Source of the DNA: Elusimicrobia bacterium RIFCSPLOWO2_02_FULL_39_32
Lineage (GTDB): Bacteria > Elusimicrobiota > Elusimicrobia > 2-02-FULL-39-32
Direction: 5' to 3'
Length of the DNA stretch: 33,276 nucleotides
Assembly: GCA_001800135.1 (NCBI GenBank)
Contig: MGUU01000003.1
Location: 1-33,276 of the forward strand
The notes under the pieces were generated by a model. The model was given only the letters and a program-made list of their open reading frames with translations. It did not search any database and was not told the origin of the DNA. Position numbers and translations under genes: made by a program. Every line of letters begins with the position of its first letter. The stretch's first letter is position 1. Positions 107 through 33,276 of this stretch are shown here, in pieces.

Positions 107-167
107 AAAAATGTTACAAAAATGTTACAAAAAGTTGAAGAAAAGTTATCGGATTTAGTTGTATATG
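107..167 (+). promoter_or_regulatory. promoter/regulatory block of the first giant gene, copy 1 of a shared element
   Basis: AAAAATGTTAC occurs twice in tandem (107-117, 118-128). An A-rich stretch follows to 147, and a TATATG box lies at 162-167. The same block stands before the second giant gene at 17783-17843. The first 41 bases match at 40 positions, the next 14 are unrelated, and the TATA-like box falls at exactly the same offset. That arrangement fits a binding site plus a -10 element. The giant gene starts 52 nt after the box. The binding protein is unknown. Confidence 0.6.
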
Positions 168-13578: not shown

Positions 13579-15045
13579 GTGAAATTACGCACACGCTTCA
13601 TACTATTCTCCCTATTTTTAACCGGCATTGTTGTGGCAGGCACCAGCTACACAACCTTATATTTTTTAAAAAAATTAGTTCTTGCTGAAATTGAATCCAA
13701 CCAAAAGTCTGTTCTGCAAAATTTAAAAAAAGTTTGCGAAGAGTCCCAGATCAGCCGGGACGATATTTTTGCTTTTAATTATGTGGCTTCTTTAGAGAAA
13801 ACCGTAAAAGGAATCGCATACGCTGTTTTTGTGCATAATAAGCGGCAGTTGATTTTAGGCAAGAATAATCCTTTTGCTGAGCTGATGGGCAGTGATCCGG
13901 AAATTTTAAAAAAAGCTCAGAATCCAGCCATATTTGAAAACCTGTCTCTTAAAGACGGCAGAAAAATTATGAATTTCTCTTCCAGCGTGGACTCATCCGG
14001 GGGCAGAGTAGGATCAGTTTATCTTGGTTTTTATGAAAATAAAATAGAAGAAAATATTCAAGAATCTGTTTCCAGAATTAAAAAGATCATTATTTATGTA
14101 GCCTCAGGAGTTTTTGTGGTTGGGTTCATCCTCTCCCTGATCTTCGCCATCCAGTTAAGCCGTCCTATTATCAGGCTGGCTAAAGGAGCCCAAGCCATTG
14201 GCGAAGGGAATTTAGAAACGCAGATTGATATTAAAAGAAAAGATGAAATTGGGGTTTTAGCGGATGAGTTTAATATCATGGCGGTCAAATTAAAGGAATT
14301 GGATCAACTTAAAGATGCGTTTGTTTCCAGCGTTTCCCATGAGCTGCGCAGCCCTTTAACAGCTATTTCCGGCTATGTAGAGCTCTTGACCATGAAGCCT
14401 GTGAATGAACTCAATCCAGATAAGGTGAAAAAAGCTCTTAATATTATTCAGGAGAGCACCACTCGTTTAACTCAGTTTGTAAACGATGTTTTAGACGCTG
14501 CAAAAATTAAAGCTGGCAAGATGGAAATTCATAAATCTCCTTTTGATATTCGAGCCACTGGAGAAAGCGTTATGGGATTATTCCAACCCTTGTTTGATAA
14601 AAAGAAACTTACAGGTAAAATACAAATTGCGGAAAATATTCCCATAGTTCCTGGGGATGGGGAAAAGGTGCGGCAGGTCATAACCAATTTTCTTTCCAAT
14701 GCTTACAAATTTACGCCTGAAGGCGGCGTCATTACTTTAATTGCGGAAGAGTTTGATAAAAATGAATTTATTAAAGTCTCTATAAAAGATAATGGCATAG
14801 GCATCCCAAAGCAGCATCAACATCTTGTTTTTGGAAGGTTCCAGCAGGTGCCGGGTTCTAAGGATAAGATTCAGGGACCTAAAGGAACTGGTTTGGGTTT
14901 AGTCATTGCCAAAGGCATAGTAGAAGCCCATGGCGGAAAAATTGGTTTTGAAAGCGAAGAAGGCAAAGGCACCACTTTCTTTTTTACCATGCCTGTTAAG
15001 GGGGAAATGGGTAGGACTGTAGTTGAATCCAAAAAACTAGCTTAA
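13579..15045 (+). CDS. membrane sensor histidine kinase
   Basis: 488 codons with a GTG start 13 nt after the preceding stop, so probably one operon with the receiver-adaptor gene; no strong Shine-Dalgarno is visible. Membrane helices at about 7-30 and 170-191 enclose a sensor region of some 140 residues. HAMP covers about 192-245, HisKA carries SHELRSP with phospho-acceptor H254, and the ATPase domain shows the N box (N370, N374), DNGIGIP at 404-410 and GTGLGL at 436-441. All catalytic boxes are intact. It most likely phosphorylates D55 of the upstream receiver. The sensed signal is unknown. A hairpin terminator lies about 20 nt after the stop. Confidence 0.93.
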   Translation: MKLRTRFILFSLFLTGIVVAGTSYTTLYFLKKLVLAEIESNQKSVLQNLKKVCEESQISRDDIFAFNYVASLEKTVKGIAYAVFVHNKRQLILGKNNPFAELMGSDPEILKKAQNPAIFENLSLKDGRKIMNFSSSVDSSGGRVGSVYLGFYENKIEENIQESVSRIKKIIIYVASGVFVVGFILSLIFAIQLSRPIIRLAKGAQAIGEGNLETQIDIKRKDEIGVLADEFNIMAVKLKELDQLKDAFVSSVSHELRSPLTAISGYVELLTMKPVNELNPDKVKKALNIIQESTTRLTQFVNDVLDAAKIKAGKMEIHKSPFDIRATGESVMGLFQPLFDKKKLTGKIQIAENIPIVPGDGEKVRQVITNFLSNAYKFTPEGGVITLIAEEFDKNEFIKVSIKDNGIGIPKQHQHLVFGRFQQVPGSKDKIQGPKGTGLGLVIAKGIVEAHGGKIGFESEEGKGTTFFFTMPVKGEMGRTVVESKKLA

Positions 15046-17782: not shown

Positions 17783-17843
17783 AAAAATGTTACAAAAATG
17801 TTACAAAAAGTTTAAGAAAAGTTTAAGTGACTTCTGCTATATT
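17783..17843 (+). promoter_or_regulatory. promoter/regulatory block of the second giant gene, copy 2 of the shared element
   Basis: AAAAATGTTAC twice in tandem (17783-17793, 17794-17804), then the same A-rich stretch to 17823 as before the first giant gene, with one mismatch in 41. TATATT sits at 17838-17843, the offset at which copy 1 has TATATG. The start of the giant gene is about 190 nt further on, against 52 nt in copy 1, leaving a long leader. Confidence 0.6.
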
Positions 17844-17870: not shown

Positions 17871-18050
17871 CATGTTCAGTTTATTTTTATTCATGGAGAA
17901 AATTCTAGAGAGAAAAATATTATACCTATTGGCCATTTAATATAATTTATTCAATGTTCCAAATAAAAATTATTGGAGAAAGTTCTAAAGAAAAGATTAT
18001 TGTTCATGTTGGTTGTTTGTTCCAATAGACATAATGATCAAAATAAAAAT
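17871..18050 (+). repeat. imperfect 80-bp tandem repeat in the leader of the second giant gene
   Basis: Segments 17881-17960 and 17961-18040 match at a fixed 80-nt offset. GGAGAA at 17895 recurs at 17975, TTCTA at 17903 at 17983, and AAATAAAAAT at 17961 at 18041. ATG codons fall at 17872, 17954 and 18034 in corresponding places. The first two open frames of 22 and 24 codons; the third opens the giant gene. This looks like duplication of the start-codon neighbourhood. Confidence 0.5.
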
Positions 18051-21000
18051 TAGACGACTTTACAGAAAAACCAAAAGAAACTTCTGGAGGGCATTTTTTT
18101 GTCCGATTCCACACACCTCACCCTTTTCATTTTTAATTTTTAAATTAATCCCCACTAGCCAGTTTTATAAAAAGACAGTTGCTCTCACAACTGTCTTTAT
18201 TTATTTTACTACACAGATTGCGTTTGCGCAGAATGTGATGATGGCCATGCCAAAAAATGCTCTACCAGAACTGTTCCAGAATCTAAAAGTTAAATTCAAT
18301 CTTTATTGGACCGCAGGAAGAATTGTGTTTCATGCCCTGCCCGGATATGACAAATTAAGAGAAGATAGGGACCGCTCCGGCTACATGAGCCCGGAAAGAT
18401 TGATGGAAAGAGAAAAACAGCAATTGGATCGTCTGGAAACACCGCAGCAGTTGATGAAAGACAGAGGCTTACAAATGCCTAAAGGCCAAGAGCAGTATAA
18501 CGGCAAAGAAAAGATGACAGCAGAGCAGTTCTGGCAGAACATGGAGACCATGAAAGGGATTCAAGGGGATATAGCCAGAGTGAGACAGCAATCTAAACAA
18601 GATGTGGCTGCCGGCACAGAAGCGAACTACATACTTTACAATGATGGGAAACAGGTATTTTTTAAAGATGGATTAACGACCAGGGTATTAAATGAGCGGG
18701 TGTTAGATCCCAGAGGAAATTTGACTTTAAGGAATACCTTTCAGATGGGATATAACAACAAGCGTTTAATGACCTCTTACATTGCGGATGAGACTGACTC
18801 ACAAGGGAATATTACGACCACCCGACGTAAAGATATTACCTACACTGATGACTCTGTATATTACGCGGGCAAAGATACTGTGGCGAAGCAACAGATCACA
18901 AGTTTTGAAGAAAATCGCGTAGATCCTTTAGGTAACGCAAGCACGATTATCCGTAAAAACATGAAATATGATGATGATTCTCGAGTAAAACATTTTGAGG
19001 AAGATCAGATAGATACCTTTGGCAATAAGAGCAATAAGACTTGGACCAATGCCAATTATGACAGCAATGATAACTTAATGAACTATGATGAAAATACAAT
19101 AGATTCTTTTGGCAATAAAACCTCTAAACATTGGGGAGATGCAAAGTATATTATGAATCCTCAATGGACTGGGGATTCAGATCGGGTGCATCAAAAATAT
19201 TTGCTTGCAGAATATACACAAACCGTTGTGGATGCGTCTGGGGCAAAAAGCGTGGAGAAGTGGGGCGAAGCCCAATACAATCAATATAATGAGCTGGTAT
19301 ATCATAAAACAATTCGCACGGATTTCTTAGGCTTTAAAACAGTTACGGAATTTTCTGATGGACAGTACAACCAATATGGGCAAATGACCAACTTTAAACA
19401 GCAAACTTTAGACGCGCATGGGAATTTTCAGCTTATGGAAAGAAATGGCATTACCTATACAAAGCTTGGGGATACTCTTTCCTATAATGAGATTGTTTCT
19501 GATGATAAAGGTAAAAGAATAGAGAGAACAAGAACTAATATAGTTTATAACGATAAGCGTTTGCAGATTGGTTATTTTGAATTAGAAACTTTGCCGGATC
19601 TAACCCAAGTGGGCAAAACATGGTCTGTTGCTGAAAAAGAAGGGGAGAAAATAAAAGGATATAAGGAAGTCAAGGGCAAAGCCGGATATTTTAAACAAGA
19701 AGCCTTGTCTGTTCCATCTCTTATTCAGACACAAATTATTAAAGATTGGTCTGCTTATGGAAAAAACGAAGGTTATAATGAGCGAGGCCAACTCATAGGG
19801 TACAGAGAAATTAGTGGTATTTACAGAAATGGTATTAAGGAAGGAGAAAGAGATATTGAAGTTAAAAAATATGTTTCTGATATTACTTATGATAAGTCAG
19901 GTAAACAATCCGGATCTATAGAGGACACTTTCACTCTTGGCAAAAATGAGAATGGAAAAAACATTGATGGCCGTTTACTTATTTCTACCGCAAGATTATC
20001 TACAGAAGAAGATATTGAAGGCAAGATCATTGGTTATAAAGAGCGTGTGGATACAAAAGGCTGGGATGGGGAAGGGAGTTTAAAGCGAGACCTATCAGTA
20101 GAAAAAGTTAGGGACAGCATTACTTTAACTAGCTATAACGAGACTGTGCATACCTTTTCTCAAGATGGGGATGATAAATTAGATACTACTAGTTACACGG
20201 AAAGAAAAGATATGGTCCTAGATGGGTTTGCCCGTTTAGTTTCTTATAAGGAAGATTTTTTTTCCGAACATGGAAACGAAGATTCAAAAGTTTCAAGAGA
20301 GGTTTCCACCATCCATTACGATTTGCGGAATTTGATGGTGGGCTCTTACGAGGTGAGCAAAGATATCAGAGGCGCGCTCACCACCACCTTCCTTTCCAAC
20401 AGCCTCTATAACGCTTTGAGCCAGTCGATCTCATTCTTGAGGCAAACAATCCAAGAAGGGAAATCGGGCGCCTCTGCGGTCGAGCTTTTTAGGTCGAAGA
20501 TCACCTATAACGGGCTAGGGGATATGATGAGCTACACCGATCATTCGAGGAAGTTCGATAAAGATTTCAAAAATCAGCTTTCGAACAAGGTAGATGTGAT
20601 TGATTGGAATGCGCTTGGCTACAACCGTTTTGGTCAGCTCACCGGCTATGTGCAAGGATTCGTAGAGAACGGATTAAATATTGAGATGAAAGTAACTAGC
20701 ATCAAATATGATTCTTTCGGCAGAACCACGGAGCAGTTGACCACCAATCATAAAACGGGAACGGAAACGCGCGTCTCTTATACTTTGGGAGACGGCACTG
20801 TTTTGTCTCCAATGGATCTTTCGATGTTATTGGAAGAGAACGGCCTTAAAAGTTGGGATCAGCTCTTGAAAGATGGAGTAGATGGAAATATCTATCAAAC
20901 CATCAGCCTCTCTGAGTTTATGAAAATGCTGGAGTCCAATGAGGCGAAAGGAAAAGATCTGGAAGCCTTGATGAATGAAGGGTTGTTGAAGTTCAGCGTT

Positions 21001-24000
21001 GAAGGGAATCTTGTCACCTACGCCAGATTGCGAGAAAATATCGTTGCCAGACTTTCCGACGAAGAGAAAGCGGCGAATGCGGAGAATTTAGCTCAAATCA
21101 TAAAGGAAAAGATCATCAGAGAAATCCAAAATCAAACATTAAAGGTACAGGTTCGCCAGCTCTTAAGGAAGGTAACTCAATTTGCGCCGGTGGATGTTAC
21201 GGATCGAACAATCCGCACCGGATCGAAATATTATGAGAAGGGCATCAACTACGGTTTGATGAAGGAGTACACCGACACCGCCTTCAACCTCGTTTTGGGC
21301 GGAGAATCGGTTGATGATGACACCATGCAGATGCTATTGGATAAGGCGGAAAGAATGTTTGCGGACGCGAGAGATGACCCCAGCGCGGAAAAAGAAAATT
21401 TGAATATCGAGTTCTATTTGATCAAGGCGCTTTCCCATTATGCCTTAAAACTTGAGGCGGACGGAAAGAAAATAGACGATATCCTTCTCTTCCAAAATTC
21501 CGTTAAGCAGATGGATTATAACGATTTAGGCCGGGCGACCGGTTATATCAATGTGCAGGGCTATTCCTTAAATATCAAGAGCGATTACATGATGGATGGG
21601 CATAAACTGAGCTGGGATGAATTGAAAGCGTTTGTGGGGAACGACGGCTCAAAAATTTGGAAGCTCCTCAAAGATGGCACGCTCACTCGCGTTTCTAAAT
21701 TGGCGGCGAATACTGAGAGCTCAATTTCGATTCGTTCGAATGTTGGATACAATGAGTTGGGAAGCATTCAAGGTTATGACGAGAAATCTACCGACGAAAA
21801 GGGGGGGGTCCTATCGCTCATCGTCCATACGGAACTCACCTATAACGAGCTAGAGCAGGTTTTGACCACCTTTACGAAAACTTCTATCTCCCGTGTGAAA
21901 GGAGGGTATGAAGAGAGCTATCTTTTGACCAGCAACCAATATAATAAAGAAAATAATCAATTGATCGGAGCTGTCGCGGCCACCCCCAAAGATAAAAGGA
22001 ATTTCACGCGGGATTTAGTCTGGACGAATGTGGATGAGAACGGGGAAGGGGGCGAGTTGGTGGAATCGATCAGCGAGTCGGGCAGTAGTGTGATGTCTTT
22101 TTTTACCGCGATCAACGGTATGACAAAGCTTTTGGCTCAGAGCGTCTATTCAGAAACGAGATTAAAGAAGGGAGATTTCAGCTCCTCCAATCAAAATATG
22201 TTCTATGAATATGATCCAGTCACCGGAAGGCTTCTCAATGCGAGCGGAATCACATTCTCCTCTTCACAAGGAGCATACCTCACGGAAGATGGCACCGCGT
22301 TGGTTCCGGTTCTCTCCACAACGATTTCAAGAAGCGTTTTTTCTACTTACGGGAGCCAAACCAAGTTGGTGATAAGCATTAGCGACAGTGATTCAAGAGG
22401 CGCAGATACCAGCCAGACCAAGCAGACGATGGTGACTGTCAATGAGTATAAAGATAACGGCAGGTTGGAGGATTCATGGGGCCGCGGCAGCTCCATCTCC
22501 CACGGCAGTTTTAAAAAAGATATGGATGGAAATCTAATAAGAGATGAATGGGGGATGCCTATTCCAAACGACATGACGGTTGGAACCATGATTCAGGAAT
22601 TTATGGTGATCAACGATGAGGCTCTATTGGAATCTCAAGGGACGAAGTCCACCCAGCTCTATTATAATGACGCGACCGGCGAGTGGGTGCCAGAACTCAA
22701 TGGAAACAGCTACTCAACCCAAAACATGCAGATCTATATTTATGATTCTGTAGGGCGTTTAAAAGGCGTGCAAGGGGGGATGGGAGCCGAAACCGGCATT
22801 ATAGCGAGAGGATTCACTCAAGGTGAGATCGCTTTAAAAGAGATCAATAAGGCTTTAAAATTAGGGCGGCCTCAAGACTTAGCTGTGCTTGAGGCTCTCA
22901 ACATGACTTTGGAAGAGCTGGAGGAACTGAAAGATGACGAGGCGGAAGAAAAAATCCTCACCGCCTTCAATTCGATTCTTGCCCTGCCAGAATTTTATGA
23001 GTCTGTTGATGTAGAGGCTCTGGGGCTTACGGATGATATGAAATCGCGATTGGATCGGATCAAAAATCTGGTGGTCAAAGGGAAAGAGGAGAGGGGGAAG
23101 GTTAAAAATCTTTTTGGAAGCGAGGATCTAAAAACTTTAAGGATTTTCAATAAGGCTCTGCTGCAAGCGCTCTATGCGGATGCAATGAAAGAGAGCCTCG
23201 TTGCGAAGTTGGTTTCGGGAACATTCACCGGCACAAGCGAAGGGGGCGGAAGATCGAGCGGTCTCATCTTTAACAAGTTCATGGTTATTATGGGCCAGGC
23301 GATGATGATCAACTCATACACGCTCTCAGATCAAAAAGAGCAGTGGACCAAAGAGATCACATTCACAAAACCTGTACCGCCGGTTTCAGCGCCGCCAGCT
23401 TTGGTGGAGACGATTGAGCCAGTGTCTCCTCCCTCCGGCGCCGAAGCGCCTCAATCTCCAGAGGCAACTCCTGAAACTGTTCCACAATCGGCGGCGGTTG
23501 CGGAAAGCGCCGGCAAAGTTTCTGATATGGCAAGAGCGATCACAGGCGGTCCCGTGGTCTCTCCTTTGCCTAAGATTTCGGAGGAAGAAGTTGCCAAAAG
23601 CAAAGCGGCTGTGGCTCCCAAAATAATTCCTTTATCCGAAGAACAGCTTTCTCAAGCGCCGCAGCCTGAGCCTTCTCTTGAACCTGCTTCAGAAATGCCT
23701 CAAGAAGCTCCCGCTCCAGATTTATCGGCCCAAGGTCCCATGCCCGCGGAGACCACCCCAACTTCCCCTCCGTCGGCACCCTCCCTTGAGCCTCAAATTC
23801 AAAAACAGACGATTCGCTTTAGGGATGATAACCAAGTGGTCGGAGCTTCCTTAATTGTAAATAACAACGCTTACTTGATCGGATATGATTCTAATACGGA
23901 CAGTTTAATCGTTTACCGAAAGGACCAAAACAATCAGTGGGAGCAGGTGGGTAAAGCGGAAGTTATTTATGGAGACGATACTACCTCTCTTTATCTTGTG

Positions 24001-27000
24001 ACCGGAGAGGGAACGGATCAAACGAGAGAGATGCTTGCGGAGTATGACGCCAGAACTAATACCTTGAGCAACTCAAGTGAGCGAACAGAGATGTGGAATT
24101 TTTCCGATGAGAAAACTGGGCAGGGGGTTCAGTATCAGGAGATGACGGTTTCATATAAGTTCAACGCTTTAGGATTGATGATGGCGGCTCATGGGATCGG
24201 TTTTACTCAAGCGGATGACGGCTTTAGAAACATCACCAACAGCCTCATTGAGCAAAAGTACGACATCATCATGGGGCAGGCGAAGATGCGGGTTTCGGAG
24301 ACTAAATCCTTCACTCAAAATCTCGACGGCACTTGGAGCGCCATGGGCTGGATTATCAATGGGCAAAAAAATGGACTTCCCGTTGGCAAACCGATGACTG
24401 TGGAGTATGATTACAATAAGGATGGGGAAATGATCGGCGCCAGAGGGTACGGCGAATCGGTAACCGCTAATAGCGATGCCTCCATCACATTCAGCACTAT
24501 CGAGCAGGATTATGAAATCTTGGATGGTCAAGCAAAACTCACCCACACCAAAACAACTTCCGACACCAGCTCCAACGATACCGAGACAACCCAAGTCATC
24601 CACGTTTATTACAGCTACGATAATCGTTTGCGTCTCGTTAAAAGAGGCGGCGTTTATGGCGGAAAAAAAGATAAGAGCGGAAAATGGATCCGCTCCACAT
24701 TTGGAGAGGGGACAACCTCTTCGATCCAAAGGGACAAAAACGGCATCATCACCAACATTTCTAAAGGAAAGATTTTTCAAACATACGACATCTTTTTTAA
24801 CCAGGCTAAACTGATCGAGTCTGTAACTGTCAATGATGGTTGGTTGGAAGGGGCTGAGACGTGGAGCCAAAAACAGAGCACCTTAAAATATATTTATGAT
24901 AAGTCGGGCAGGATTGCCGGCGCCAATGGATTCGAACGGGAACTCAAAGGAGACCTGTTCCTTAAAAAAGATGTCACCGAAACACTCACCTACCAAACCT
25001 ACGAAATCATCCAAGGCCAAGCCAAAGTCACCAACTATAAATCTATTTCAAGAGCTCGTCATTTTATAACTCTTGCAGGAAAAAACGATCTAGATATAAG
25101 AGAGATGGTGATCAATAGCGCCATCATTGGGGAGATGCTCGATCAATTCAGGCGCGACGATTTTAAAGATAATCCCGATGTGGTCTATAGCAGAACCGAA
25201 AGTTCAGGCGGCAATAGCTATGATTCTTATGGGAATCTAGTTGGAGTCACCGGTATCACAGATTCTAACACCATCAATGCGGCCACCGGCGAGCCTTCGA
25301 GAAGCGTGGATGAGCAGATCTTCATGATGTTTGACTATTCGTTCGAGAAAGATGGAATCAAGGTGCTGGGCAGGCAATCTAAAATGGTGGGCACCAAGAA
25401 CATCTCGCGGACCGGAGAGGATATTACGGTGTTGAGCAGGGCCCAGGCGGAAGGGTTGATGGCGAAGATTGCCGATGCTCTGGGGCTTTCTCAGCTTGAA
25501 ATAAAAGATCAAACCGCATTGGTTAATTTAGCGGTAGCCCTGACCAAATCGAACGAGCCCATTTCACAGCTGATCGAAAAAAGCAAGCTCTCCGCAAAAG
25601 ATTTCTTCTCGACGGTGCTTTTCATACTGGATGAGGCTGGAGCCACACTCAACGCTCTACAGCTCGACATGTTTGAAGCGATGTTTCAAGTGGTGGGGGA
25701 GGCATTAAAAACTGTTTTATTCAGATTCACTTCGCTGTTGATTGGCGGCGAAGAATCGGAGATGACTCAAACGGTGCAGTCTGTTTTTAACGATCTTAAA
25801 GAGAATTTCAGTACTCTAAAAGATCCAACCGATCTAACGAGTTTCGTCTTGAATGGAGTCTATGTTATCGATACCCTAGAAGGGGCGCAGTTGCCCGAAG
25901 GCGTGGAGACCAAAAAAATGCTTTGGTGGACGGCCGATGGCAAGCTTGTGATCCATAGAGATGTATTAAATGAGTGGGCAAGGCTTGAAAGGGAAGATAC
26001 AAACGAACCCAAAAAATTTACGGTTCGGGGCGCCCTGCAAAAGATGATGCTCCAGGAAAATTATGAATACTCCCACGCCAAGGCGAAGTGGGATGAAGGC
26101 GAAATCGCATCTGCTCAAGATTTGAAAGGATGGAGCATGCATGCGGAAACAGAAAAAGAAAAAGGCGGGTTGGGTTATACTGTTCCCGGCATCATTGGAA
26201 ATTATGGGGCGCCTACGATTTCGGCAGGAGGCAAAACACCTGGCGCCTCTTCTCTATATGGAACGGATAACTGGAGCGCGCTCTTGAAAGCGCTTAGCAA
26301 TGTGAAGGTAGTGAGGATGAATGCCGATGGCACATATGTAAGAGATGAGAGCGATAATCTTGTTGAAGATCCGATCAATACCGAGATTGCGATCGAGGGA
26401 GTGACAGATACGTTATTGCAAGGGGAGAATGCGGGCATTGTTACAAATGTGGATATGGATAGGGCTGCGGTGAAGGTGGGAGCTTTCGCATCCGATGTGG
26501 ATGGCAGCTGGAAGCTGGAATGGAGTGAATCAACTCAAAAGTTTTCTTTTGTGAGGCGGGATGCGGCAGGGACTGTGGCAGAAAGTTTTCTATTTGAAGA
26601 TCAAGATCCGTTGATCAGCGGTTATATTGTGAAAGATGGAGTTGCTGTTCCAACTTTCGGCGAAGAGCTTCCTCCAACTTGGACAGAGGAGCAGAAAGAG
26701 GCTCGGAAAAACGATAAAGATTTCTTTAAGAGCGAGTTTAGAGTGGGCGATAATGTGATGGGGCGCTATATCCGCTATGGAAGCGGAAAGAATGTGCGAA
26801 TCATGATTATTCTTTATAGGGAGGATGGCAACCTTAAAGCCCGCTACAACAAAGATTCAAGTTCGATCTCTTTCGATATCAAAGGGCCAGAAATAGTAAA
26901 AACTGGCGGCGGAACATGGGTTTATGCCGATGGCGATGATAGAGGGACGCCGGTGGATGTGGACGCCAGCATTTCGGATCCTGACGGCGATATGAGGAGC

Positions 27001-30000
27001 GAGTATAATGGCAGAGCTGTGGAATTTAGAAGGGATACCGCCTTCGACTTTATGAAGTATAGCTTTGCCGCCAACACCGACAAATTTAGTCAGGACTATT
27101 TTGTTGGCAACGCCCCGCCCCTTGGTTTTGCAACGGCGCTTGCGGGTAAAGCCGTCTTTGACCAAGCGGCGATTGATGCCTATACCGAGGCCTATAAGCT
27201 AGCTAATAGTGGAGCTGATTATAAAGATAGCCAAGAATATAAGGATATTCTTGCGGCGAACGAAAATAATGCGGCGACTGCAACTAAAATATTCCATGAG
27301 AATCATCAGCTTTTGACCTCGCTCGATTTGGCTGAGATGAAGCCGAAGTACCAAGAGGATCCCCATTACAAAAAGCTGGATGTTTCAAATAAATCGGAAT
27401 ATTTTAGGCAGAACGCAATCTTTAAAGTTGGGGATACCAGCCGCTATGCGGTGCTGGGTTACAGTCTATTGATGCAGATTAAGAAAGTGGATGCGCCCAT
27501 CAATGTAAATGGTTCGGTGGAGAAAAAAGATCTGATCGCTAAAGAGACCGTCAACCGGGGATTCCGCGATCCCGCCCGTGAAGCTTTAAGTTGGAGAATC
27601 AACAAACTATCCATCTCTTTCAAAGGGCCCGCTGGCGAAACGCTTGTGGGGATTGATGGGTTTAAGAATTTTATTCTTAAGTTTCAAGAAGCTGAGAACG
27701 TAGAAGCATCTAAACGAATTGATGTCACAAAGGATCTTTTTTATGATCGGGTTGAAGAAAAGTTCACAGATAATCCTCAGAGCGGCGAAGGGGATAAGGT
27801 AAGAGCAAATATCCGTGTCAACAATGATTTTCTGCAATACTTTGTAACTACCAAGAAATTTTTAAATCCCATCACCATGAAGTTGACCGATTCTCCCTAC
27901 AGGCATCCGTCGAGCGGCAAAAGAGATGATTGGGGAGAGGATTCAAGCTCCTATCAAACGGAGGAAGATACTGACAGCAATGGAGTTAAGGAGAAGTTTG
28001 ACAATCTGGTCAATCTGCGGCTTGTTGAAATGGAAATTTTTAGCCGCAACTACAACTCTGAAGATGGGTTTGGCGCAGCCACCAATGCTCCCTTCCGCGC
28101 TCCATCAGCGGCGAACCTCAACCGGATTTATCAGGATGCGACTCATATTTATGAAAAGATTATCGGCTCCTATAGCGGCGCAAAATATTATTTTAACTCT
28201 ACCACCAAGACATTTACCACGAAACCATATAGAACCTCCGCTGGCGTGGACACTGACAATGCAACCGAAGGAACGACTAACAATATCGCCAATGATGGGC
28301 CCTTTAAGTTGGTGGAAGTGCCAGATAAAAAACCTACCGCCAATGCGGATGTCCTTTGGTTCTACAATTCTAAAAAAGAGGATTACACTCAGTCCCCATT
28401 CAGATTTACTGAAGATTATACCTTCGAACAAGATCTGTATGACAATTCTACTCCGCCGACAAAATTATATAGCGCAGGGCAAACCGTTCACGCAGGGGAT
28501 GATACGATGTTGAGTTCCTTTGTTAAGAATGGAAGAACGGTCTTTAACACCCCTAACGAAGGGGTCGCAAACTTTAATCCTGTCACGGGCGAAATTACTG
28601 TGCGGGGATTTAGAGGCAATGGAAATGCGGGGGAAGGGAATTCCAGCGCTCAGGAGTGGAGCCAGCTCTTTCACAATCCAAAAGATATCATAGATTCTTC
28701 TCAAACGGATCCAGCGAAAAGATTTCAGCAAACCGACTATAAATTTACCTATCTGAATGAAAAAGGAAAATACGCTTATACCGATAAACAGATGCGCATC
28801 AGGCTGGATAAAACGGAAGGCGACCCGCCCGTTACTACAACTACTTTTGAGTTTAAGGATCTCAGTGACTTCACAAAACAGGATGGCAGTGCGGATCTTT
28901 ATACGGATAAAGAGGGCAATATTTGGAGGAAGGCTGGCAATGAGTTCTCTTTTGTCAGCGATAAAGAGGGTGGAACCGGCGGTAAATATACTGGGGCCAA
29001 GTGGGAGATGAACGAGAGTCTGGAAGCCTATGAGCATATCGAAAATATCAAGAATGTGGAGAACAAGGCTTTAGACGCCAAAACTTTAGGAGCGATCAAA
29101 GATAATACTCAAGTGGTGAGCGCAAGCAAGCTCCACAGGATCGGCCTCGGGGATAATGTGGGCGTCATTACCCGTTTTGACACCAATAAATTTATGGAAA
29201 ACGGAAACTGGAAAACAAGTTTTGGCATGTTCTCCAAAGATATGGCGCAGGCCGATTCGTTATTTAGAGTCTTCACTGGTTTTAAGAAAAATGAGCAGGG
29301 GAATATGGAGAGGGTGATCATGGTGACCGCCGGCTCCTCGGATGATCCGATTAAGGCGACCATCAAATGGAACCGTGAGGGCAACTCTTTCTCCTATGAA
29401 CAGGATAAGGATAATAAATTTATACAAGAGTGGAATCCTGCCGGCGCTCCGGCGAACACATTGGTTTTAAAAGACAAAGTGACCGGCAACGAGGTGGCGC
29501 GCTTTACGTTTGAGTTGGGCGGGCCGCGGGGCAAGCTGGTCACAATTAAGAAAAACGGGGAGATTTTTGCCCGAATTGCTGGTAACGGCGACTTTATTTC
29601 CAAGGATGGGAACTTGTATACAGAAGAAAAATCCGGCTTTAAGCGTGGCGATTCAAGCGCCAGCGTCTCTTCGCTTTTTGGCGTGGTAGATTTTTCAAAA
29701 TTCTTCAGTCCTGTATTCGATATCGGGGCAGAAAAAGCAAGGTCGTTTGTCAGCTCTCTATTCAAAGCGCTTTCTCCTAAGAAACTTTTCCAGGAGCTCG
29801 AAACAAAGTTTGAAGTGATGCCTGTGGGGGAGATGAAGGTAGTCACGCCTCCTGCCGCTCTGCAGGGGCCCGAAGCGCTTTTAGCCTACCTAGCCAACAC
29901 TCCCGCTTTAGAAGGGATAGACTTAAGCAATGTAAAACTCACTCAGCTCGCTGACGGGAAGGTAGATATCTCTATTAAGGAAGGCAATACCACAGCCAAA

Positions 30001-33000
30001 GGAACGATTTCCAAACCTAAAGAGGAAACAGCTGCGGATGGATCGAGAAAGCTGACATGGAGCCTCAATGTGGAGCGGGGAGAAGAAAAGGTCTCCGGCT
30101 TTGGTTCAAGTTCTTATCAGGAGATGTACACTACCTATGAGTATGACAGCAAAGGATTTTTGATTGGAGCAAAAGGGAAAGGGTGGTATAAAAATGATGA
30201 CGGCTTTGGCAATATCACCACAGGAAACATCACACAAACCTATGTGATCATCAAAAACCAGGCGAAGATTAAAACTTCCGAATCCACAAGCTACTCTGTG
30301 AATGTGGATGGGAGCCAGAGCTGGCAGGATGGCTCAACCCGGTTTGGAGCGCGCACTCAGGCAAGCGTGGTCACTTATGATTATAACGCCAACGGCCTTC
30401 TTCAAGGAACCGGCGCTACTGCATCGAAGGGAACTTCTGTTACTGATGATGGTTTCGGCAACTGGACCAAAACAGATATTTTTCAAACCTATACACTCGT
30501 CAACAATCAAGCAAAACTTAAATCGTCCCGCTCTGTTTCCGATACTTCAAATCTGGATCTTTCCACTTCCCATCAGGATTTGACGGTTACCTATAGCTAC
30601 TATGGAGAAAGAGATGAGGATGGGAGGGTGAAGTTCCCTGCGAGTGAGGAGCTCGACCACCGTGTTGGGCAGATGGCGGATGCCCACGGAGTTGGATCTA
30701 CAAGCTCCAATGACGGTTTCGGAAATACGAGCGAAGGGGAGCTGATTCAAGGCTACTCCATTATCCGCGGCCAGGCGAAACTTTTGACCTCTACCACGAA
30801 GAGCCGCTCCACAAATGCGGATGGCTCAAGAAGCTGGCAAGATGGCTCTGTGCAAAATGAGATCCAAACTCGCGCGATGACTGTCACTTATCGCTATGAT
30901 GAGAACGGCCACTTAAGAGATGACGGCGCTGTGATCGAGGAGGGGAACGAAGGGATTTCCGTTAGCAACGATGGCTTTGACAACTGGACCACGAGCATCA
31001 TCAAGCAGGAGTTTTCGATCCTCAACGGTCAGGCGAAGATGAAGGATTCGATCACACGCTCTTTCACAAGAAATGTGGATGGATCTTGGAGCGTGATGGG
31101 CTGGGGCTGGGAAGATTTTGCAAGCCTTGGAATCAACACCGGCAATTATGGAACCAAGGCGGGCTGGCAGGGCGGCAATGCGATGCGGCTCTCCTATTAT
31201 TATTATGGCCAGGACAGGGAAGATTCTGAAACGAGAAACTATAAATCCAGAGTGGATCGAAACGCCAAGCGCTATAAAGGAACTACCGCCTACGCGGAAG
31301 GGAGCGGAAGTTCGATTTCGAACGACGGCTTTGGAAATAAGAGTTTCGCGGATATCCGGCAGGTTTTTGAGATATATAAGGGGCAAGCCAAAATATTGAC
31401 CAACGAAACCAAAAGCCGCTCAGAAAATATTGATGGATCAAAGAGCTGGCAAGATAGGAGCGTTCGAAATGGGGTCACGACTGTCAGTAATATAGTCACC
31501 TACATTTATAATGCCAACGGCGTTTTAATTGGAGATGGAGCTAGCGCTAACACAGGAATTCTGATGAGTGATGATGGCACCGGCAACTGGACTAAGAGCA
31601 CCATTAGCCAAAAATATGTTTTGGTGAACGGCCAGGCGAAAGTGAAGAGCTCACGCAACATCGCAGAAAGCGCCACAGTGGGAACGAAAAATGCCGATGA
31701 GTCCACCTCCTATCAAGATACCACCGTTGTTTACAGCTACTATGGAGAAAAAGATGCGAATGGGAATGTGATCGCTGATTTGAGGACGACTTCGGACCAT
31801 CTCCTTGGGCAGACGGCAAAAGTGGAAGGGAAGGGCACCACCCGCTCCAATGACGGTTTCGACAACTGGACCGCGGGCACGCTGGAACAGAAATTTGAGA
31901 TCATCCGCGGCCAGGCAAAAATTACGATGAGCCGAACAAAGAGCTGGTCGAGCGGCTCCGCGGGGGCTGGCGCGTGGGAATATCAAAATGGAAGTTGGAC
32001 ATTCAATGCGGAAGCGAGTGGGGGCAGCTATCAAAATCCAGTTGCCAATAGCGACGGCTCTTGGAACAAACAGGATGTGACGGTTTACTTCGCCTACGAC
32101 GCGAACGGGAGTATCGTGCTTGAGGGGGGGCTCTTTGGAGGCAAAGAGATCAAAGATAATGAAGGGCAGGTGATCAATCGGTTGACGACAGGAGAGGGCG
32201 TTACTCGCTCTGACGACGGTTTTGGAAATATTAGCGCGGGGACCATCCTTCAGAATTATCGAATCGTCAAAGGGCAGGCGAAACTTGCGAGCACCAAGAA
32301 CATTGTTGAGGCGGCAAAGATCAAGCTCGACCCCAGTGGACGTGTGGTTCGGGATGCGGATGGGGAAGCGGTTTTAGAAGATGCGCGGGGCAATATTGAC
32401 GGCTCCACTAGTTTTCAAGAGATGTGGACGAAATATGATTATGAGGAGTCCACAGGAAAACAGACAGGACAGAGCGGCAAAGGAACCTCTCTTTCGAACG
32501 ATGGTTTTGGCAACTATACCGCAGGGACGATCGAACAGGAATATTCTTTGGAAGGGAGAGAAAATCAGGGGCAAAGCTGGAAAATTTTAAAAACGACGAA
32601 CCGAAGCTGGAGCTCGACCGCGAGTGGAGCTGGAGCCTATGAAGTGTTGAATGGTTCGACTTGGAGATTTACAGCAAGCTCGGACGGTGGAAGTTATGAT
32701 GATCCTGCCGCCGCAAGCGATGGAACCTGGTCCAAACAGAAGATGGAGACCCTCTATCGTTATATTTCTAATGGAAAACAGAAGGGGCAGTTTGGAGTGG
32801 GGAGCTCACTTTCGAATGACGGCTTTGAAAACTATACAAGAGGGGCGGTTCTGCAGGAGTTTGGACTAAAGGGGAGCGCATCTGGAGGAAAACAGTTTAA
32901 AGCTCTCAATTCAAAGAGCCTCAGTTGGACGAGCAACTCAAGTGAAGCGAATTTGGAAATTCCTCTTGCCGTTTGGGATGCGGCAAAGAATGGAGGTTTA

Positions 33001-33276
33001 GGAAGTTACTCATTTGATAGTGTTATGACCAGCTCTATTTGGAGTTTAACCGCTCCGGCGCTTAACTCCAACAGCGACTCAAGCTGGAACAAGCAGACGA
33101 TGGAGACGGTGTATGAGTATGGTGCGAATGGGAGGCAGAGCGGGCAGTATGGGGTAGGGGATACATTCAGTGACGATGGATTTGGGAATTACACAAAGGG
33201 GAAGGTAGTGCAGAGATTTGCGCGAGAGTGGGAGGGGAAGGTATGGACTAGTTTTAAGCTGGTGAGTTCAAAGAGT
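18034..33276 (+). CDS. second giant repeat-rich exported protein, 3' end outside the window
   Basis: I read the frame line by line: 5081 codons from ATG 18034 to the window edge without a stop, so the protein is longer still. N-terminus: basic stretch, then a hydrophobic segment ending TTQIAFA-Q (cleavage after about residue 65), similar to the signal of the first giant protein (FTT…FAQ). Residues 310-502 hold 30-residue repeats with a Y-D…L…D-x-x-G-N pattern, a relaxed relative of RHS/YD repeats. Motifs such as YDSVGRLKG recur further on. A helical region lies near 1600-1770 and a Pro/Ala/Glu-rich linker at about 1779-1925. A unit with DDGF and GQAK begins at 2061, and unassigned sequence fills about 2500-4000. 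From 4055 to the edge there is an array of DGFGN/GQAK units. No enzyme domain was recognised. Probably a giant cell-surface fibre or adhesin; function unproven. Codon use changes sharply near residue 769. Confidence 0.88.
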   Translation, partial: MIKIKIRRLYRKTKRNFWRAFFCPIPHTSPFSFLIFKLIPTSQFYKKTVALTTVFIYFTTQIAFAQNVMMAMPKNALPELFQNLKVKFNLYWTAGRIVFHALPGYDKLREDRDRSGYMSPERLMEREKQQLDRLETPQQLMKDRGLQMPKGQEQYNGKEKMTAEQFWQNMETMKGIQGDIARVRQQSKQDVAAGTEANYILYNDGKQVFFKDGLTTRVLNERVLDPRGNLTLRNTFQMGYNNKRLMTSYIADETDSQGNITTTRRKDITYTDDSVYYAGKDTVAKQQITSFEENRVDPLGNASTIIRKNMKYDDDSRVKHFEEDQIDTFGNKSNKTWTNANYDSNDNLMNYDENTIDSFGNKTSKHWGDAKYIMNPQWTGDSDRVHQKYLLAEYTQTVVDASGAKSVEKWGEAQYNQYNELVYHKTIRTDFLGFKTVTEFSDGQYNQYGQMTNFKQQTLDAHGNFQLMERNGITYTKLGDTLSYNEIVSDDKGKRIERTRTNIVYNDKRLQIGYFELETLPDLTQVGKTWSVAEKEGEKIKGYKEVKGKAGYFKQEALSVPSLIQTQIIKDWSAYGKNEGYNERGQLIGYREISGIYRNGIKEGERDIEVKKYVSDITYDKSGKQSGSIEDTFTLGKNENGKNIDGRLLISTARLSTEEDIEGKIIGYKERVDTKGWDGEGSLKRDLSVEKVRDSITLTSYNETVHTFSQDGDDKLDTTSYTERKDMVLDGFARLVSYKEDFFSEHGNEDSKVSREVSTIHYDLRNLMVGSYEVSKDIRGALTTTFLSNSLYNALSQSISFLRQTIQEGKSGASAVELFRSKITYNGLGDMMSYTDHSRKFDKDFKNQLSNKVDVIDWNALGYNRFGQLTGYVQGFVENGLNIEMKVTSIKYDSFGRTTEQLTTNHKTGTETRVSYTLGDGTVLSPMDLSMLLEENGLKSWDQLLKDGVDGNIYQTISLSEFMKMLESNEAKGKDLEALMNEGLLKFSVEGNLVTYARLRENIVARLSDEEKAANAENLAQIIKEKIIREIQNQTLKVQVRQLLRKVTQFAPVDVTDRTIRTGSKYYEKGINYGLMKEYTDTAFNLVLGGESVDDDTMQMLLDKAERMFADARDDPSAEKENLNIEFYLIKALSHYALKLEADGKKIDDILLFQNSVKQMDYNDLGRATGYINVQGYSLNIKSDYMMDGHKLSWDELKAFVGNDGSKIWKLLKDGTLTRVSKLAANTESSISIRSNVGYNELGSIQGYDEKSTDEKGGVLSLIVHTELTYNELEQVLTTFTKTSISRVKGGYEESYLLTSNQYNKENNQLIGAVAATPKDKRNFTRDLVWTNVDENGEGGELVESISESGSSVMSFFTAINGMTKLLAQSVYSETRLKKGDFSSSNQNMFYEYDPVTGRLLNASGITFSSSQGAYLTEDGTALVPVLSTTISRSVFSTYGSQTKLVISISDSDSRGADTSQTKQTMVTVNEYKDNGRLEDSWGRGSSISHGSFKKDMDGNLIRDEWGMPIPNDMTVGTMIQEFMVINDEALLESQGTKSTQLYYNDATGEWVPELNGNSYSTQNMQIYIYDSVGRLKGVQGGMGAETGIIARGFTQGEIALKEINKALKLGRPQDLAVLEALNMTLEELEELKDDEAEEKILTAFNSILALPEFYESVDVEALGLTDDMKSRLDRIKNLVVKGKEERGKVKNLFGSEDLKTLRIFNKALLQALYADAMKESLVAKLVSGTFTGTSEGGGRSSGLIFNKFMVIMGQAMMINSYTLSDQKEQWTKEITFTKPVPPVSAPPALVETIEPVSPPSGAEAPQSPEATPETVPQSAAVAESAGKVSDMARAITGGPVVSPLPKISEEEVAKSKAAVAPKIIPLSEEQLSQAPQPEPSLEPASEMPQEAPAPDLSAQGPMPAETTPTSPPSAPSLEPQIQKQTIRFRDDNQVVGASLIVNNNAYLIGYDSNTDSLIVYRKDQNNQWEQVGKAEVIYGDDTTSLYLVTGEGTDQTREMLAEYDARTNTLSNSSERTEMWNFSDEKTGQGVQYQEMTVSYKFNALGLMMAAHGIGFTQADDGFRNITNSLIEQKYDIIMGQAKMRVSETKSFTQNLDGTWSAMGWIINGQKNGLPVGKPMTVEYDYNKDGEMIGARGYGESVTANSDASITFSTIEQDYEILDGQAKLTHTKTTSDTSSNDTETTQVIHVYYSYDNRLRLVKRGGVYGGKKDKSGKWIRSTFGEGTTSSIQRDKNGIITNISKGKIFQTYDIFFNQAKLIESVTVNDGWLEGAETWSQKQSTLKYIYDKSGRIAGANGFERELKGDLFLKKDVTETLTYQTYEIIQGQAKVTNYKSISRARHFITLAGKNDLDIREMVINSAIIGEMLDQFRRDDFKDNPDVVYSRTESSGGNSYDSYGNLVGVTGITDSNTINAATGEPSRSVDEQIFMMFDYSFEKDGIKVLGRQSKMVGTKNISRTGEDITVLSRAQAEGLMAKIADALGLSQLEIKDQTALVNLAVALTKSNEPISQLIEKSKLSAKDFFSTVLFILDEAGATLNALQLDMFEAMFQVVGEALKTVLFRFTSLLIGGEESEMTQTVQSVFNDLKENFSTLKDPTDLTSFVLNGVYVIDTLEGAQLPEGVETKKMLWWTADGKLVIHRDVLNEWARLEREDTNEPKKFTVRGALQKMMLQENYEYSHAKAKWDEGEIASAQDLKGWSMHAETEKEKGGLGYTVPGIIGNYGAPTISAGGKTPGASSLYGTDNWSALLKALSNVKVVRMNADGTYVRDESDNLVEDPINTEIAIEGVTDTLLQGENAGIVTNVDMDRAAVKVGAFASDVDGSWKLEWSESTQKFSFVRRDAAGTVAESFLFEDQDPLISGYIVKDGVAVPTFGEELPPTWTEEQKEARKNDKDFFKSEFRVGDNVMGRYIRYGSGKNVRIMIILYREDGNLKARYNKDSSSISFDIKGPEIVKTGGGTWVYADGDDRGTPVDVDASISDPDGDMRSEYNGRAVEFRRDTAFDFMKYSFAANTDKFSQDYFVGNAPPLGFATALAGKAVFDQAAIDAYTEAYKLANSGADYKDSQEYKDILAANENNAATATKIFHENHQLLTSLDLAEMKPKYQEDPHYKKLDVSNKSEYFRQNAIFKVGDTSRYAVLGYSLLMQIKKVDAPINVNGSVEKKDLIAKETVNRGFRDPAREALSWRINKLSISFKGPAGETLVGIDGFKNFILKFQEAENVEASKRIDVTKDLFYDRVEEKFTDNPQSGEGDKVRANIRVNNDFLQYFVTTKKFLNPITMKLTDSPYRHPSSGKRDDWGEDSSSYQTEEDTDSNGVKEKFDNLVNLRLVEMEIFSRNYNSEDGFGAATNAPFRAPSAANLNRIYQDATHIYEKIIGSYSGAKYYFNSTTKTFTTKPYRTSAGVDTDNATEGTTNNIANDGPFKLVEVPDKKPTANADVLWFYNSKKEDYTQSPFRFTEDYTFEQDLYDNSTPPTKLYSAGQTVHAGDDTMLSSFVKNGRTVFNTPNEGVANFNPVTGEITVRGFRGNGNAGEGNSSAQEWSQLFHNPKDIIDSSQTDPAKRFQQTDYKFTYLNEKGKYAYTDKQMRIRLDKTEGDPPVTTTTFEFKDLSDFTKQDGSADLYTDKEGNIWRKAGNEFSFVSDKEGGTGGKYTGAKWEMNESLEAYEHIENIKNVENKALDAKTLGAIKDNTQVVSASKLHRIGLGDNVGVITRFDTNKFMENGNWKTSFGMFSKDMAQADSLFRVFTGFKKNEQGNMERVIMVTAGSSDDPIKATIKWNREGNSFSYEQDKDNKFIQEWNPAGAPANTLVLKDKVTGNEVARFTFELGGPRGKLVTIKKNGEIFARIAGNGDFISKDGNLYTEEKSGFKRGDSSASVSSLFGVVDFSKFFSPVFDIGAEKARSFVSSLFKALSPKKLFQELETKFEVMPVGEMKVVTPPAALQGPEALLAYLANTPALEGIDLSNVKLTQLADGKVDISIKEGNTTAKGTISKPKEETAADGSRKLTWSLNVERGEEKVSGFGSSSYQEMYTTYEYDSKGFLIGAKGKGWYKNDDGFGNITTGNITQTYVIIKNQAKIKTSESTSYSVNVDGSQSWQDGSTRFGARTQASVVTYDYNANGLLQGTGATASKGTSVTDDGFGNWTKTDIFQTYTLVNNQAKLKSSRSVSDTSNLDLSTSHQDLTVTYSYYGERDEDGRVKFPASEELDHRVGQMADAHGVGSTSSNDGFGNTSEGELIQGYSIIRGQAKLLTSTTKSRSTNADGSRSWQDGSVQNEIQTRAMTVTYRYDENGHLRDDGAVIEEGNEGISVSNDGFDNWTTSIIKQEFSILNGQAKMKDSITRSFTRNVDGSWSVMGWGWEDFASLGINTGNYGTKAGWQGGNAMRLSYYYYGQDREDSETRNYKSRVDRNAKRYKGTTAYAEGSGSSISNDGFGNKSFADIRQVFEIYKGQAKILTNETKSRSENIDGSKSWQDRSVRNGVTTVSNIVTYIYNANGVLIGDGASANTGILMSDDGTGNWTKSTISQKYVLVNGQAKVKSSRNIAESATVGTKNADESTSYQDTTVVYSYYGEKDANGNVIADLRTTSDHLLGQTAKVEGKGTTRSNDGFDNWTAGTLEQKFEIIRGQAKITMSRTKSWSSGSAGAGAWEYQNGSWTFNAEASGGSYQNPVANSDGSWNKQDVTVYFAYDANGSIVLEGGLFGGKEIKDNEGQVINRLTTGEGVTRSDDGFGNISAGTILQNYRIVKGQAKLASTKNIVEAAKIKLDPSGRVVRDADGEAVLEDARGNIDGSTSFQEMWTKYDYEESTGKQTGQSGKGTSLSNDGFGNYTAGTIEQEYSLEGRENQGQSWKILKTTNRSWSSTASGAGAYEVLNGSTWRFTASSDGGSYDDPAAASDGTWSKQKMETLYRYISNGKQKGQFGVGSSLSNDGFENYTRGAVLQEFGLKGSASGGKQFKALNSKSLSWTSNSSEANLEIPLAVWDAAKNGGLGSYSFDSVMTSSIWSLTAPALNSNSDSSWNKQTMETVYEYGANGRQSGQYGVGDTFSDDGFGNYTKGKVVQRFAREWEGKVWTSFKLVSSKS
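18086..18143 (+). other. orphan ribosome site and alternative start of the second giant gene
   Basis: GGAGG at 18086-18090 lies 8 nt before TTG at 18099, better placed than anything before ATG 18034. The TTG frame stops after 14 codons at 18141-18143. Removing one base from the T-run 18137-18141 would join it to the giant frame just before the signal peptide, giving a signal of ordinary length (about 44 residues). So the true start may be 18099 with a single-base error or slippage in this run. Confidence 0.35.
18961..19539 (+). repeat. 30-residue (90-bp) tandem repeats near the N-terminus of the second giant protein
   Basis: Units of exactly 30 residues start at 18961, 19051, 19270, 19360 and 19450; the unit at 19141 is enlarged to 43. 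Shared pattern: aromatic Y at position 3, often D or N at 4, L, M or V at 9-10, F or Y at 11-12, D near 18, G at 21, often N next. DNA identity is low, so the array is old. The spacing of Y-D and D-x-x-G-N resembles YD repeats, but the unit is longer. Confidence 0.75.
23368..23808 (+). repeat. Pro/Ala/Glu/Ser-rich low-complexity linker
   Basis: About 147 residues of the second giant protein rich in P, A, E, S and V with PxP and EPS motifs, followed by a beta-rich block. It divides the protein into an N-terminal part and the part holding the DGFGN/GQAK units, much as Pro-rich linkers divide the first giant protein. Confidence 0.7.
30196..33276 (+). repeat. array of DGFGN/GQAK surface repeats, cut by the window edge
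   Basis: The motif (S/D)-(N/D)-D-G-F-x-N starts at 30196, 30445, 30709, 30967, 31321, 31570 (DGTGN), 31849, 32212, 32497, 32815 and 33172. In most units it is followed by x-I-x-Q-x-(Y/F) and GQAK, then S-x-T-(K)-S and a variable beta-rich part ending YxYxxNGxLxG. Spacing is 249 to 363 nt. A related isolated unit starts at 24214, and eroded ones occur near 22580, 24490, 24730 and 24970. The array is still running at the edge. Confidence 0.85.

What the first reader, a model, noticed from the sequence alone, without database searches (positions are those of the whole stretch)
30196..33276. Higher-order repeat inside the DGFGN/GQAK array
Unit types alternate. Those at 30196 and 31321 share SxNxDGSxSWQD. 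Those at 30445 and 31570 share SSR, TSxQD and YSYYGE-(R/K)-D. The pair recurs with a period of 1125 nt (249-nt first interval in both). Units at 31849, 32497 and 32815 form a third type with SWSS or SWTS and a duplicated Trp-rich part. This points to stepwise duplication of multi-unit blocks.
Basis: seen in the sequence. Interest (0 to 1): 0.7.

Follow-up and report, generated by a model that had tools for sequence, protein, structure and literature searches.

The report
Block-duplicated Rhs-like repeats in giant protein
The window ends inside a gene for an exported protein of roughly 24,000 amino acids from a groundwater bacterium (phylum Elusimicrobiota), and its long array of repeats, which resembles the Rhs/YD kind of beta-sheet shell, grew by copying blocks of several repeats at once rather than one repeat at a time.

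Summary
The finding is real and its interpretation is right, though the window alone could not prove it. The motifs, the 1125-nt period and the 249-nt interval check out, but within the window the two-unit block is not significant (554 of 5000 permutations as good). The window is a whole contig; the gene continues on a second contig (C20). A gap of about 110 nt is implied, in frame, inside a near-identical duplicate, giving about 24,100 aa. The array has about 85 units. Over all units, block registers at lag 3 and lag 15 beat every one of 300 permutations, and only 3 of 85 units resemble a neighbour most. The block D-A-B-C-E-C2-Y (30955-33159) recurs on C20 at 53% identity over 671 aa. A same-genus genome has the orthologous array, colinear unit by unit (z=30), with block lag 12; the lag of 15 here equals 12 plus one extra three-unit block. 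Order is shared within a genus or family, absent between families. AlphaFold models of 4 and 9 units are confident and all-beta; the 9-unit model best matches Rhs effector shells (Foldseek E 9e-12). Growth by multi-domain blocks, and huge proteins in Elusimicrobiota, are already known. Function is inferred.

The parts
18034..33276 (+). 5' part of the giant gene (ATG at 18034 favoured because the same-genus sequence is conserved from MIKIKIRRLYRK on; TTG at 18013 also possible); open to the contig end, continues on contig C20 (18,984 more codons)
18169..18228 (+). signal-peptide-like segment KKTVALTTVFIYFTTQIAFA|Q near the N-terminus (by eye)
   Evidence: inference from sequence
24205..25255 (+). 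four early, diverged units of the same repeat family, before a non-repeat stretch of about 5 kb
   Evidence: three of the four are reciprocal best matches in the same-genus genome
30184..30432 (+). unit A1 (SYSVNVDGSQSWQD)
30433..30696 (+). unit B1 (SSR..YSYYGERD)
   Evidence: orthologue support 0.96
30955..33159 (+). seven-unit block D-A-B-C-E-C2-Y whose paralogue lies at C20:2687-4822 (53% identity, 671 aligned aa, best of 21 registers)
30955..31308 (+). unit D (NVDGSWSVMGW)
31309..31557 (+). unit A2 (SENIDGSKSWQD)
   Evidence: orthologue support 0.97
31558..31836 (+). unit B2 (SSR..YSYYGEKD)
31837..32199 (+). unit C (SWSS, Trp-rich insert)
32200..32484 (+). unit E (paralogue C20:3890, support 0.96)
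32485..32802 (+). unit C2 (SWSS)
   Evidence: orthologue support 0.93
32803..33159 (+). unit Y (SWTS), first unit of the three-unit block Y-Z-X
33160..33276 (+). unit Z, cut by the contig end
33070..33276 (+). near-identical tract: 97% identical to C20:704-910 (last 87 nt exact); its counterpart C20:1-97 is 100% identical to C20:1021-1117; both give a spacing of 1020 nt if about 110 nt is missing between the contigs

Best explanation
The region is part of a coding array of about 85 units in one exported giant protein (about 24,100 aa if the two contigs are joined as the sequence implies). The array grew by nested duplication of multi-unit blocks, most likely through homologous recombination (unequal crossing-over and gene conversion) between repeats, followed by long divergence under purifying selection. 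Shown: unit types recur in the same order at fixed lags; an old block of about 12 units is shared with a same-genus species; this genome has one further three-unit block (spacing 1020 nt) and a set of three-unit blocks on C20; near-identical tracts with sharp borders lie inside diverged copies; unit order is conserved within a genus. Supported by prediction: the units form a continuous antiparallel beta-sheet of the Rhs/YD kind. Inferred: the protein is exported (signal-like N-terminus, almost no cysteine) and the array is a long surface or shell-like scaffold, perhaps adhesive; lengthening by whole blocks adds scaffold length while keeping the local sequence of unit types.
For: Block registers: lag 3 score 20.6 and lag 15 score 16.7 against a null maximum of 6.2 +/- 1.0, 0 of 300 permutations each; 3 of 85 units have an adjacent nearest unit. 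Unit tree with matching clades in matching order. Seven-unit block at 53% identity over 671 aa; scores fall off on both sides of the right register to a background of about 620-850. Replicate in a same-genus genome: lag 12, 0 of 300; colinearity of units between the two species z=30 (66.5 vs 23.7 +/- 1.2). Orthologues group together within the old block, e.g. 31312 with G001 34245 at 0.97 and C20_3890 with G001 39119 at 0.94, so that block predates the split. Contig ends explained by a duplicated tract with 1020-nt spacing, and in G001 the units matching the end of C3 and the start of C20 lie on one contig. Codon positions 1/2/3 differ by 0.27/0.26/0.60 between orthologous units. Models: 4 units pLDDT 86, pTM 0.82; 9 units pLDDT 82, pTM 0.74. 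Foldseek top three for the 9-unit model: Rhs effector Tse15 twice (9e-12, 9.5e-12) and TcdB2-TccC3 (1.4e-9), next hit 2e-4.
Against: The junction of C3 and C20 is implied, not read; the true gap could hold more units. The G001 copy has two frame changes near the same place and its own contig break in the three-unit-block zone, so part of the copy-number difference could be assembly. In the combined tree Y (C3_32806) sits with the G001 unit (0.95) and Y' (C20_389) just outside, so the extra three-unit block may be a loss in G001 rather than a gain here, with later conversion. A third D-A-B-C-E copy at C20 17531-18731 is not significant. Whole-model TM-scores to Rhs shells are very low (0.05-0.10) despite the strong local match, and the second aligner ranks porin-type sheets first. 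Export and surface function are inferred only.
Confidence: 0.86

Rival explanations
1. The array grew by duplication of single units only; the matching types are chance.
For: Within the window alone the lag-4 pairing is reached by 554 of 5000 permutations, and C2-Y are adjacent and similar. A lag-1 run (C20_8528..C20_19061) also scores above nearly all permutations, and G001 has a strong lag-1 run, so some single-unit growth or regional likeness exists.
Against: Only 3 of 85 units have an adjacent nearest unit; lag 3 and lag 15 beat all 300 permutations; one contiguous register gives 671 aa at 53% identity; lag 12 in the second species.
Confidence: 0.03
2. Types recur because the fold needs alternating unit types, so similarity reflects convergent constraint rather than block copying.
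For: The order of types is kept under purifying selection for a long time, so position matters.
Against: Block copies share specific residues over seven units, including idiosyncratic inserts, and near-identical DNA tracts exist. Families of relatives have arrays with no shared order (z about 0), so no fixed order is required by the fold.
Confidence: 0.04
3. The higher-order pattern is an assembly artefact (chimeric or collapsed repeats).
For: Contigs C3 and C20 both end inside a near-identical repeat; G001 breaks in the array as well.
Against: The old blocks differ by over 40% in protein sequence, far beyond assembly error. An independently assembled genome has the same order, unit by unit.
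Confidence: 0.03
4. The array is the Rhs-type shell of a polymorphic toxin or similar delivery protein, with the cargo in the C-terminal half, rather than an adhesive or structural scaffold. (A rival on function only; it is compatible with block duplication.)
For: Foldseek top hits of the 9-unit model are Rhs effector shells. Metalloprotease-like motifs (HEEVH, HEYLEA; HTHP..) lie near the C-terminus of the giant protein, with a sub-threshold hit to a putative metallopeptidase family (PF20573, E 0.0043).
Against: No Rhs, TEN_YD-shell or toxin family passes a cut-off in the window or on C20. About 85 units are many more than one known shell needs; about 10,000 residues follow the array.
Confidence: 0.25

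Closest known systems
Rhs/YD-repeat beta-shells (Rhs effector Tse15, TcC component, teneurins)
   Same: All-beta, antiparallel strands of about 13 residues, YxYDxxGxL-type hairpin in each unit; top three Foldseek hits of the 9-unit model are Rhs-type shells; teneurin-2 is the top hit of the 4-unit model. RHS_repeat (PF05593) scores over its cut-off once in a relative's array frame and below it on many of its units.
   Different: Unit is about 69 aa at core (83-135 aa here) with DGFGN and GQAK motifs; own units do not reach the Rhs cut-off; about 85 units in one protein of about 24,000 aa; no Rhs core or toxin domain detected.
Expansion of protein domain repeats by multi-domain duplication (nebulin seven-domain units; PMC1553488)
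   Same: Arrays expand by duplication of several domains at a time, often in the middle of the array; single-domain duplication is less common.
   Different: That survey stresses eukaryotes, vertebrates above all; here the block history is read in a bacterial array with an outgroup species.
Huge proteins of Elusimicrobiota and Omnitrophota (PMC11573180, PMC10066038, PMC12057145)
   Same: Elusimicrobiota are among the bacterial phyla richest in proteins over 5000 aa; Omnitrophota have open frames over 20 kb, up to 39,678 aa, with proposed attachment or predation roles.
   Different: Those papers report few annotated domains and poor conservation; here a repeat family with an Rhs-like predicted fold and conserved unit order is described.
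Giant surface proteins of Apilactobacillus kunkeei (PMC12863079)
   Same: Signal peptide, long imperfect repeat arrays, recombination hot spots inside repeats.
   Different: 3000-8000 aa, mostly helical repeats in three of the five; no sequence comparison was made here.

Membership tests
Multi-unit (block) duplicated repeat array | Unit tree with alternating clades in matching order, nearest relatives at a fixed lag above 1 | tested here: met
Multi-unit (block) duplicated repeat array | Order beyond chance under permutation of units | tested here: met
   0 of 300 permutations for lag 3 and lag 15; lag 12 in G001 0 of 300
Rhs/YD repeat family | Match to RHS_repeat (PF05593) over the curated cut-off | tested here: not met
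   Best in own genome E 0.012, 18.2 bits, cut-off 22, no hit listed in the window. Relatives: one hit of 22.4 bits in the G003 array frame and one of 30.4 bits in the G020 giant frame, the latter outside the recognised units.
Rhs/YD repeat family | TEN_YD-shell domain (PF25023) | tested here: not met
   No match in G000 at E<=1
Rhs/YD repeat family | Continuous antiparallel beta-sheet like that of solved Rhs shells | tested here: inconclusive
   Foldseek E 9e-12, prob 0.98 to 8uxt, but TM-score 0.07; VIA-align lists porin-type sheets first
Rhs/YD repeat family | Hollow shell that encloses a C-terminal cargo | not testable with these tools
   coordinates of the models are not returned; the whole array is too long to fold
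Huge protein (over 5000 aa) of Elusimicrobiota | Open frame over 5000 codons in an Elusimicrobiota genome | tested here: met
   5088 codons to the contig end and 18,984 on C20; relatives named Elusimicrobia
Surface adhesin | Surface exposure and binding | not testable with these tools
   only a signal-like N-terminus and lack of cysteine

The most novel reading that the evidence does not exclude
A bacterial protein of about 24,000 aa carries an exceptionally long Rhs/YD-like beta-sheet of about 85 units, forming a continuous spiral or filament whose unit types and order are maintained by selection within a genus while it lengthens by whole-block recombination; arrays of different families were built independently from the same unit.
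Probability: 0.3. Interest if true: 0.65.

Novelty: new variant of a known kind. Interest (0 to 1): 0.45.

Why it matters
It gives a readable history of how a giant bacterial gene lengthens: an old 12-unit block, later three-unit blocks, and recent tracts that still break assemblies, with an outgroup species to order some of the steps. It also offers a fold hypothesis (Rhs/YD-like sheet) for giant proteins of Elusimicrobiota, which published surveys list as poorly characterised. It shows that such genes can be split across contigs at their own repeats, so their length is underestimated.

Tried and rejected
Pfam, NCBIfam and PHROGs gave no family for the giant gene in the window; weak hits (Ntox33 E 0.008, Pyocin_S, CBM65) are below their cut-offs and were taken as chance. 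Profile of the unit against PDB sequences: no hit. Tandem Repeats Finder finds no DNA array in the region because the units are too diverged. A first guess of Omnitrophota was dropped after (relatives are Elusimicrobia). The helicase-like stretch on C20 had no PDB or NCBIfam support. Unit order between families: no colinearity (z between -1.1 and 1.8). BFVD fold search: nothing below E 0.001, the best a phage protein at the border. A first multi-unit alignment (A2) contained rows overlapping the target and was replaced by A3.

Full report
Where the finding lies. The window is the whole of contig C3 (33,276 nt) of a 2.52-Mb genome in 27 contigs, 97% complete. Its last open frame runs from 18013 (ATG at 18034 is favoured, since the same-genus sequence is conserved from there) to the contig end, 5088 codons. 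A 637-aa protein upstream in the window has its nearest named relative, at 89% identity, in an Elusimicrobia groundwater genome (JACPBF010000008.1), and the next ones are Elusimicrobia too. So the host is an uncultured member of Elusimicrobiota.

The gene continues on contig C20. That contig (104,648 nt) starts inside the same kind of repeats and its frame 2 is open for 18,984 codons. The last 207 nt of C3 are 97% identical to C20:704-910, the last 87 nt without a difference, and C20:1-97 is 100% identical to C20:1021-1117. Both matches fit a single picture: C3 ends and C20 starts inside one copy of a duplicated tract whose other copy is intact in C20; 110 nt lie between, the frame is kept, and the two copies are 1020 nt (three units) apart. 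The implied protein has about 24,100 residues. I only computed lengths; the missing stretch was not filled in. Support from another species: in G001 (same genus) the units that match the end of C3 and the start of C20 lie on one contig, although two frame changes occur there in that assembly.

The observation. The array is larger than stated: a profile of the unit finds 4 units at 24205-25255, 11 in 30184-33276 (the last cut by the contig end) and about 70 on C20 up to position 25,900. In the window the types run A1, B1, A', D, A2, B2, C, E, C2, Y, Z. B1-B2 is the best-scoring pair (53%), but A2 is closer to A' (30712) than to A1. With only the 11 window units, the two-unit block at lag 4 is reached by 554 of 5000 permutations, so the window alone does not prove it.

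The higher-order pattern over the whole array. With all 85 units, the best run lies at lag 3 (score 20.6) and the next at lag 15 (16.7, from C3_30700 to C20_1712 against C20_2039 to C20_7166); the null maximum over 300 permutations is 6.2 +/- 1.0 and never above 10.7. Only 3 of 85 units have an adjacent unit as the nearest one. The block of seven units at 30955-33159 aligns to C20:2687-4822 with 53% identity over 671 residues, score 1606; shifting the register lowers the score on both sides down to a background of about 620-850. From C2 on, the copy on C20 is one unit longer (the unit at 4160), as the tree shows C2 next to C20_4493 and a weaker run lies at lag 16. A third D-A-B-C-E copy at C20 17531-18731 is suggested by the types but is not significant.

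Order of events. In G001 the same analysis gives a block at lag 12 (0 of 300). Unit order is colinear between the two species over 61 pairs (66.5 vs 23.7 +/- 1.2; z=30). Within the old block, orthologous units of the two species mostly group together (31312 with G001 34245 at 0.97, C20_3890 with G001 39119 at 0.94), so this block is older than the split. The lag of 15 in this genome is 12 plus one extra three-unit block Y-Z-X, of which G001 has a single copy. Whether that is a gain here or a loss in G001 is open, because Y groups with the G001 unit (0.95) and Y' lies just outside. Inside these copies a tract of about 414 nt is nearly identical while the flanking paralogous DNA is 78% or less; sharp borders like these are what gene conversion or recombination between repeats leaves (inference). 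A set of three-unit blocks on C20 (5192-8524) has no clear counterpart in G001, but the G001 assembly breaks just there, so that difference may be technical. Between families, unit order is not conserved at all (z between -1.1 and 1.8), while three genera of another family share their own order (z 12-16).

Selection and fold. Between orthologous units the codon positions differ by 0.27, 0.26 and 0.60 and fourfold sites by 0.67, so the array is a real, constrained protein. In G003, a relative of the same family, the unit is plainer: about 69 residues, of the form SNDGFGNLTSGxIxQTYxIIxGQAKLxxSxTxSxTxNLDGSTQxQxVTVxYxYDSxGxLxSASGxG (consensus read by eye). Its last third looks like a YD hairpin, and RHS_repeat (PF05593) hits fall on many units of that frame, mostly below the cut-off. 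AlphaFold2 gives confident all-beta models with long antiparallel strands for 4 units (pLDDT 86, pTM 0.82) and 9 units (pLDDT 82, pTM 0.74). For the 9-unit model the three best Foldseek matches are Rhs-type shells (E 9e-12, 9.5e-12 and 1.4e-9; the next is 2e-4). Whole-model TM-scores are very low and the second aligner ranks porin-type sheets first, so I call it Rhs-like, not a proven member; the window's own units fail the sequence cut-offs of PF05593 and PF25023.

Likely role. The N-terminus carries a signal-like segment, and cysteine makes up about 0.1% or less of the part on C20, as expected for an exported protein. The rest of the protein matches no family at a cut-off. The best guess is a very long beta-sheet scaffold outside the cell, lengthened by whole blocks; an adhesive or attachment role is in line with what is proposed for giant proteins in a related phylum (PMC10066038). 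A polymorphic-toxin-like shell is the main functional rival.

Novelty. Growth of repeat arrays by several domains at a time is established (PMC1553488), and Elusimicrobiota are known to be rich in huge proteins (PMC11573180). New here, as far as the papers searched show, are the unit family with its Rhs-like predicted fold, its extent in one gene, and a block history that can be ordered with an outgroup. I rate it a new variant of a known kind.

Noticed in passing
window 114-129 and 17790-17805: The box TTACAAAAATGTTACA (11-bp phased direct repeat, PhoB/OmpR-like layout) lies upstream of both large open frames in the window; 22 sites with up to one mismatch in the genome against 0 for the reversed control, and the same box precedes both orthologues in G001.
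   Followed up: partly
window 11652-13565 (P0003): A response-regulator receiver domain is fused to an RND-type membrane-fusion adaptor (PF00072 E 5.5e-25, PF16576 E 1e-21), with a histidine kinase next to it (13579-15045); two AcrB-type pumps follow the giant gene on C20.
   Followed up: partly
L012 (C20:40001-60000), C20 41426, 41798, 43004: Helicase-like motifs (AGGGKS, DEAD, LGRAGR) lie inside the giant protein far downstream of the array, without any family or PDB match.
   Followed up: partly
C20 53438, 54242, 55091, 56162: Metallopeptidase-like motifs (HEVRGH, HEYLEA, HTHPDS, HEEVHAY) near the C-terminus of the giant protein; only sub-threshold support (PF20573 E 0.0043).
   Followed up: no
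L041 (G001:C5:1-20000): The orthologous gene in the same-genus genome changes frame twice around C5 3600-4510; assembly error or real decay is not resolved.
   Followed up: no
L048 (G003:C8:5001-25000): A relative's array holds about 20 very uniform units of about 69 aa (208 nt) in a row, a plainer form of the unit; a lag-1 run is the strongest signal there.
   Followed up: partly
window 220-11532 (P0002): A second giant frame (3770 aa) without matches over the cut-off in NCBIfam or Pfam, under the same upstream box as the giant gene.
   Followed up: no
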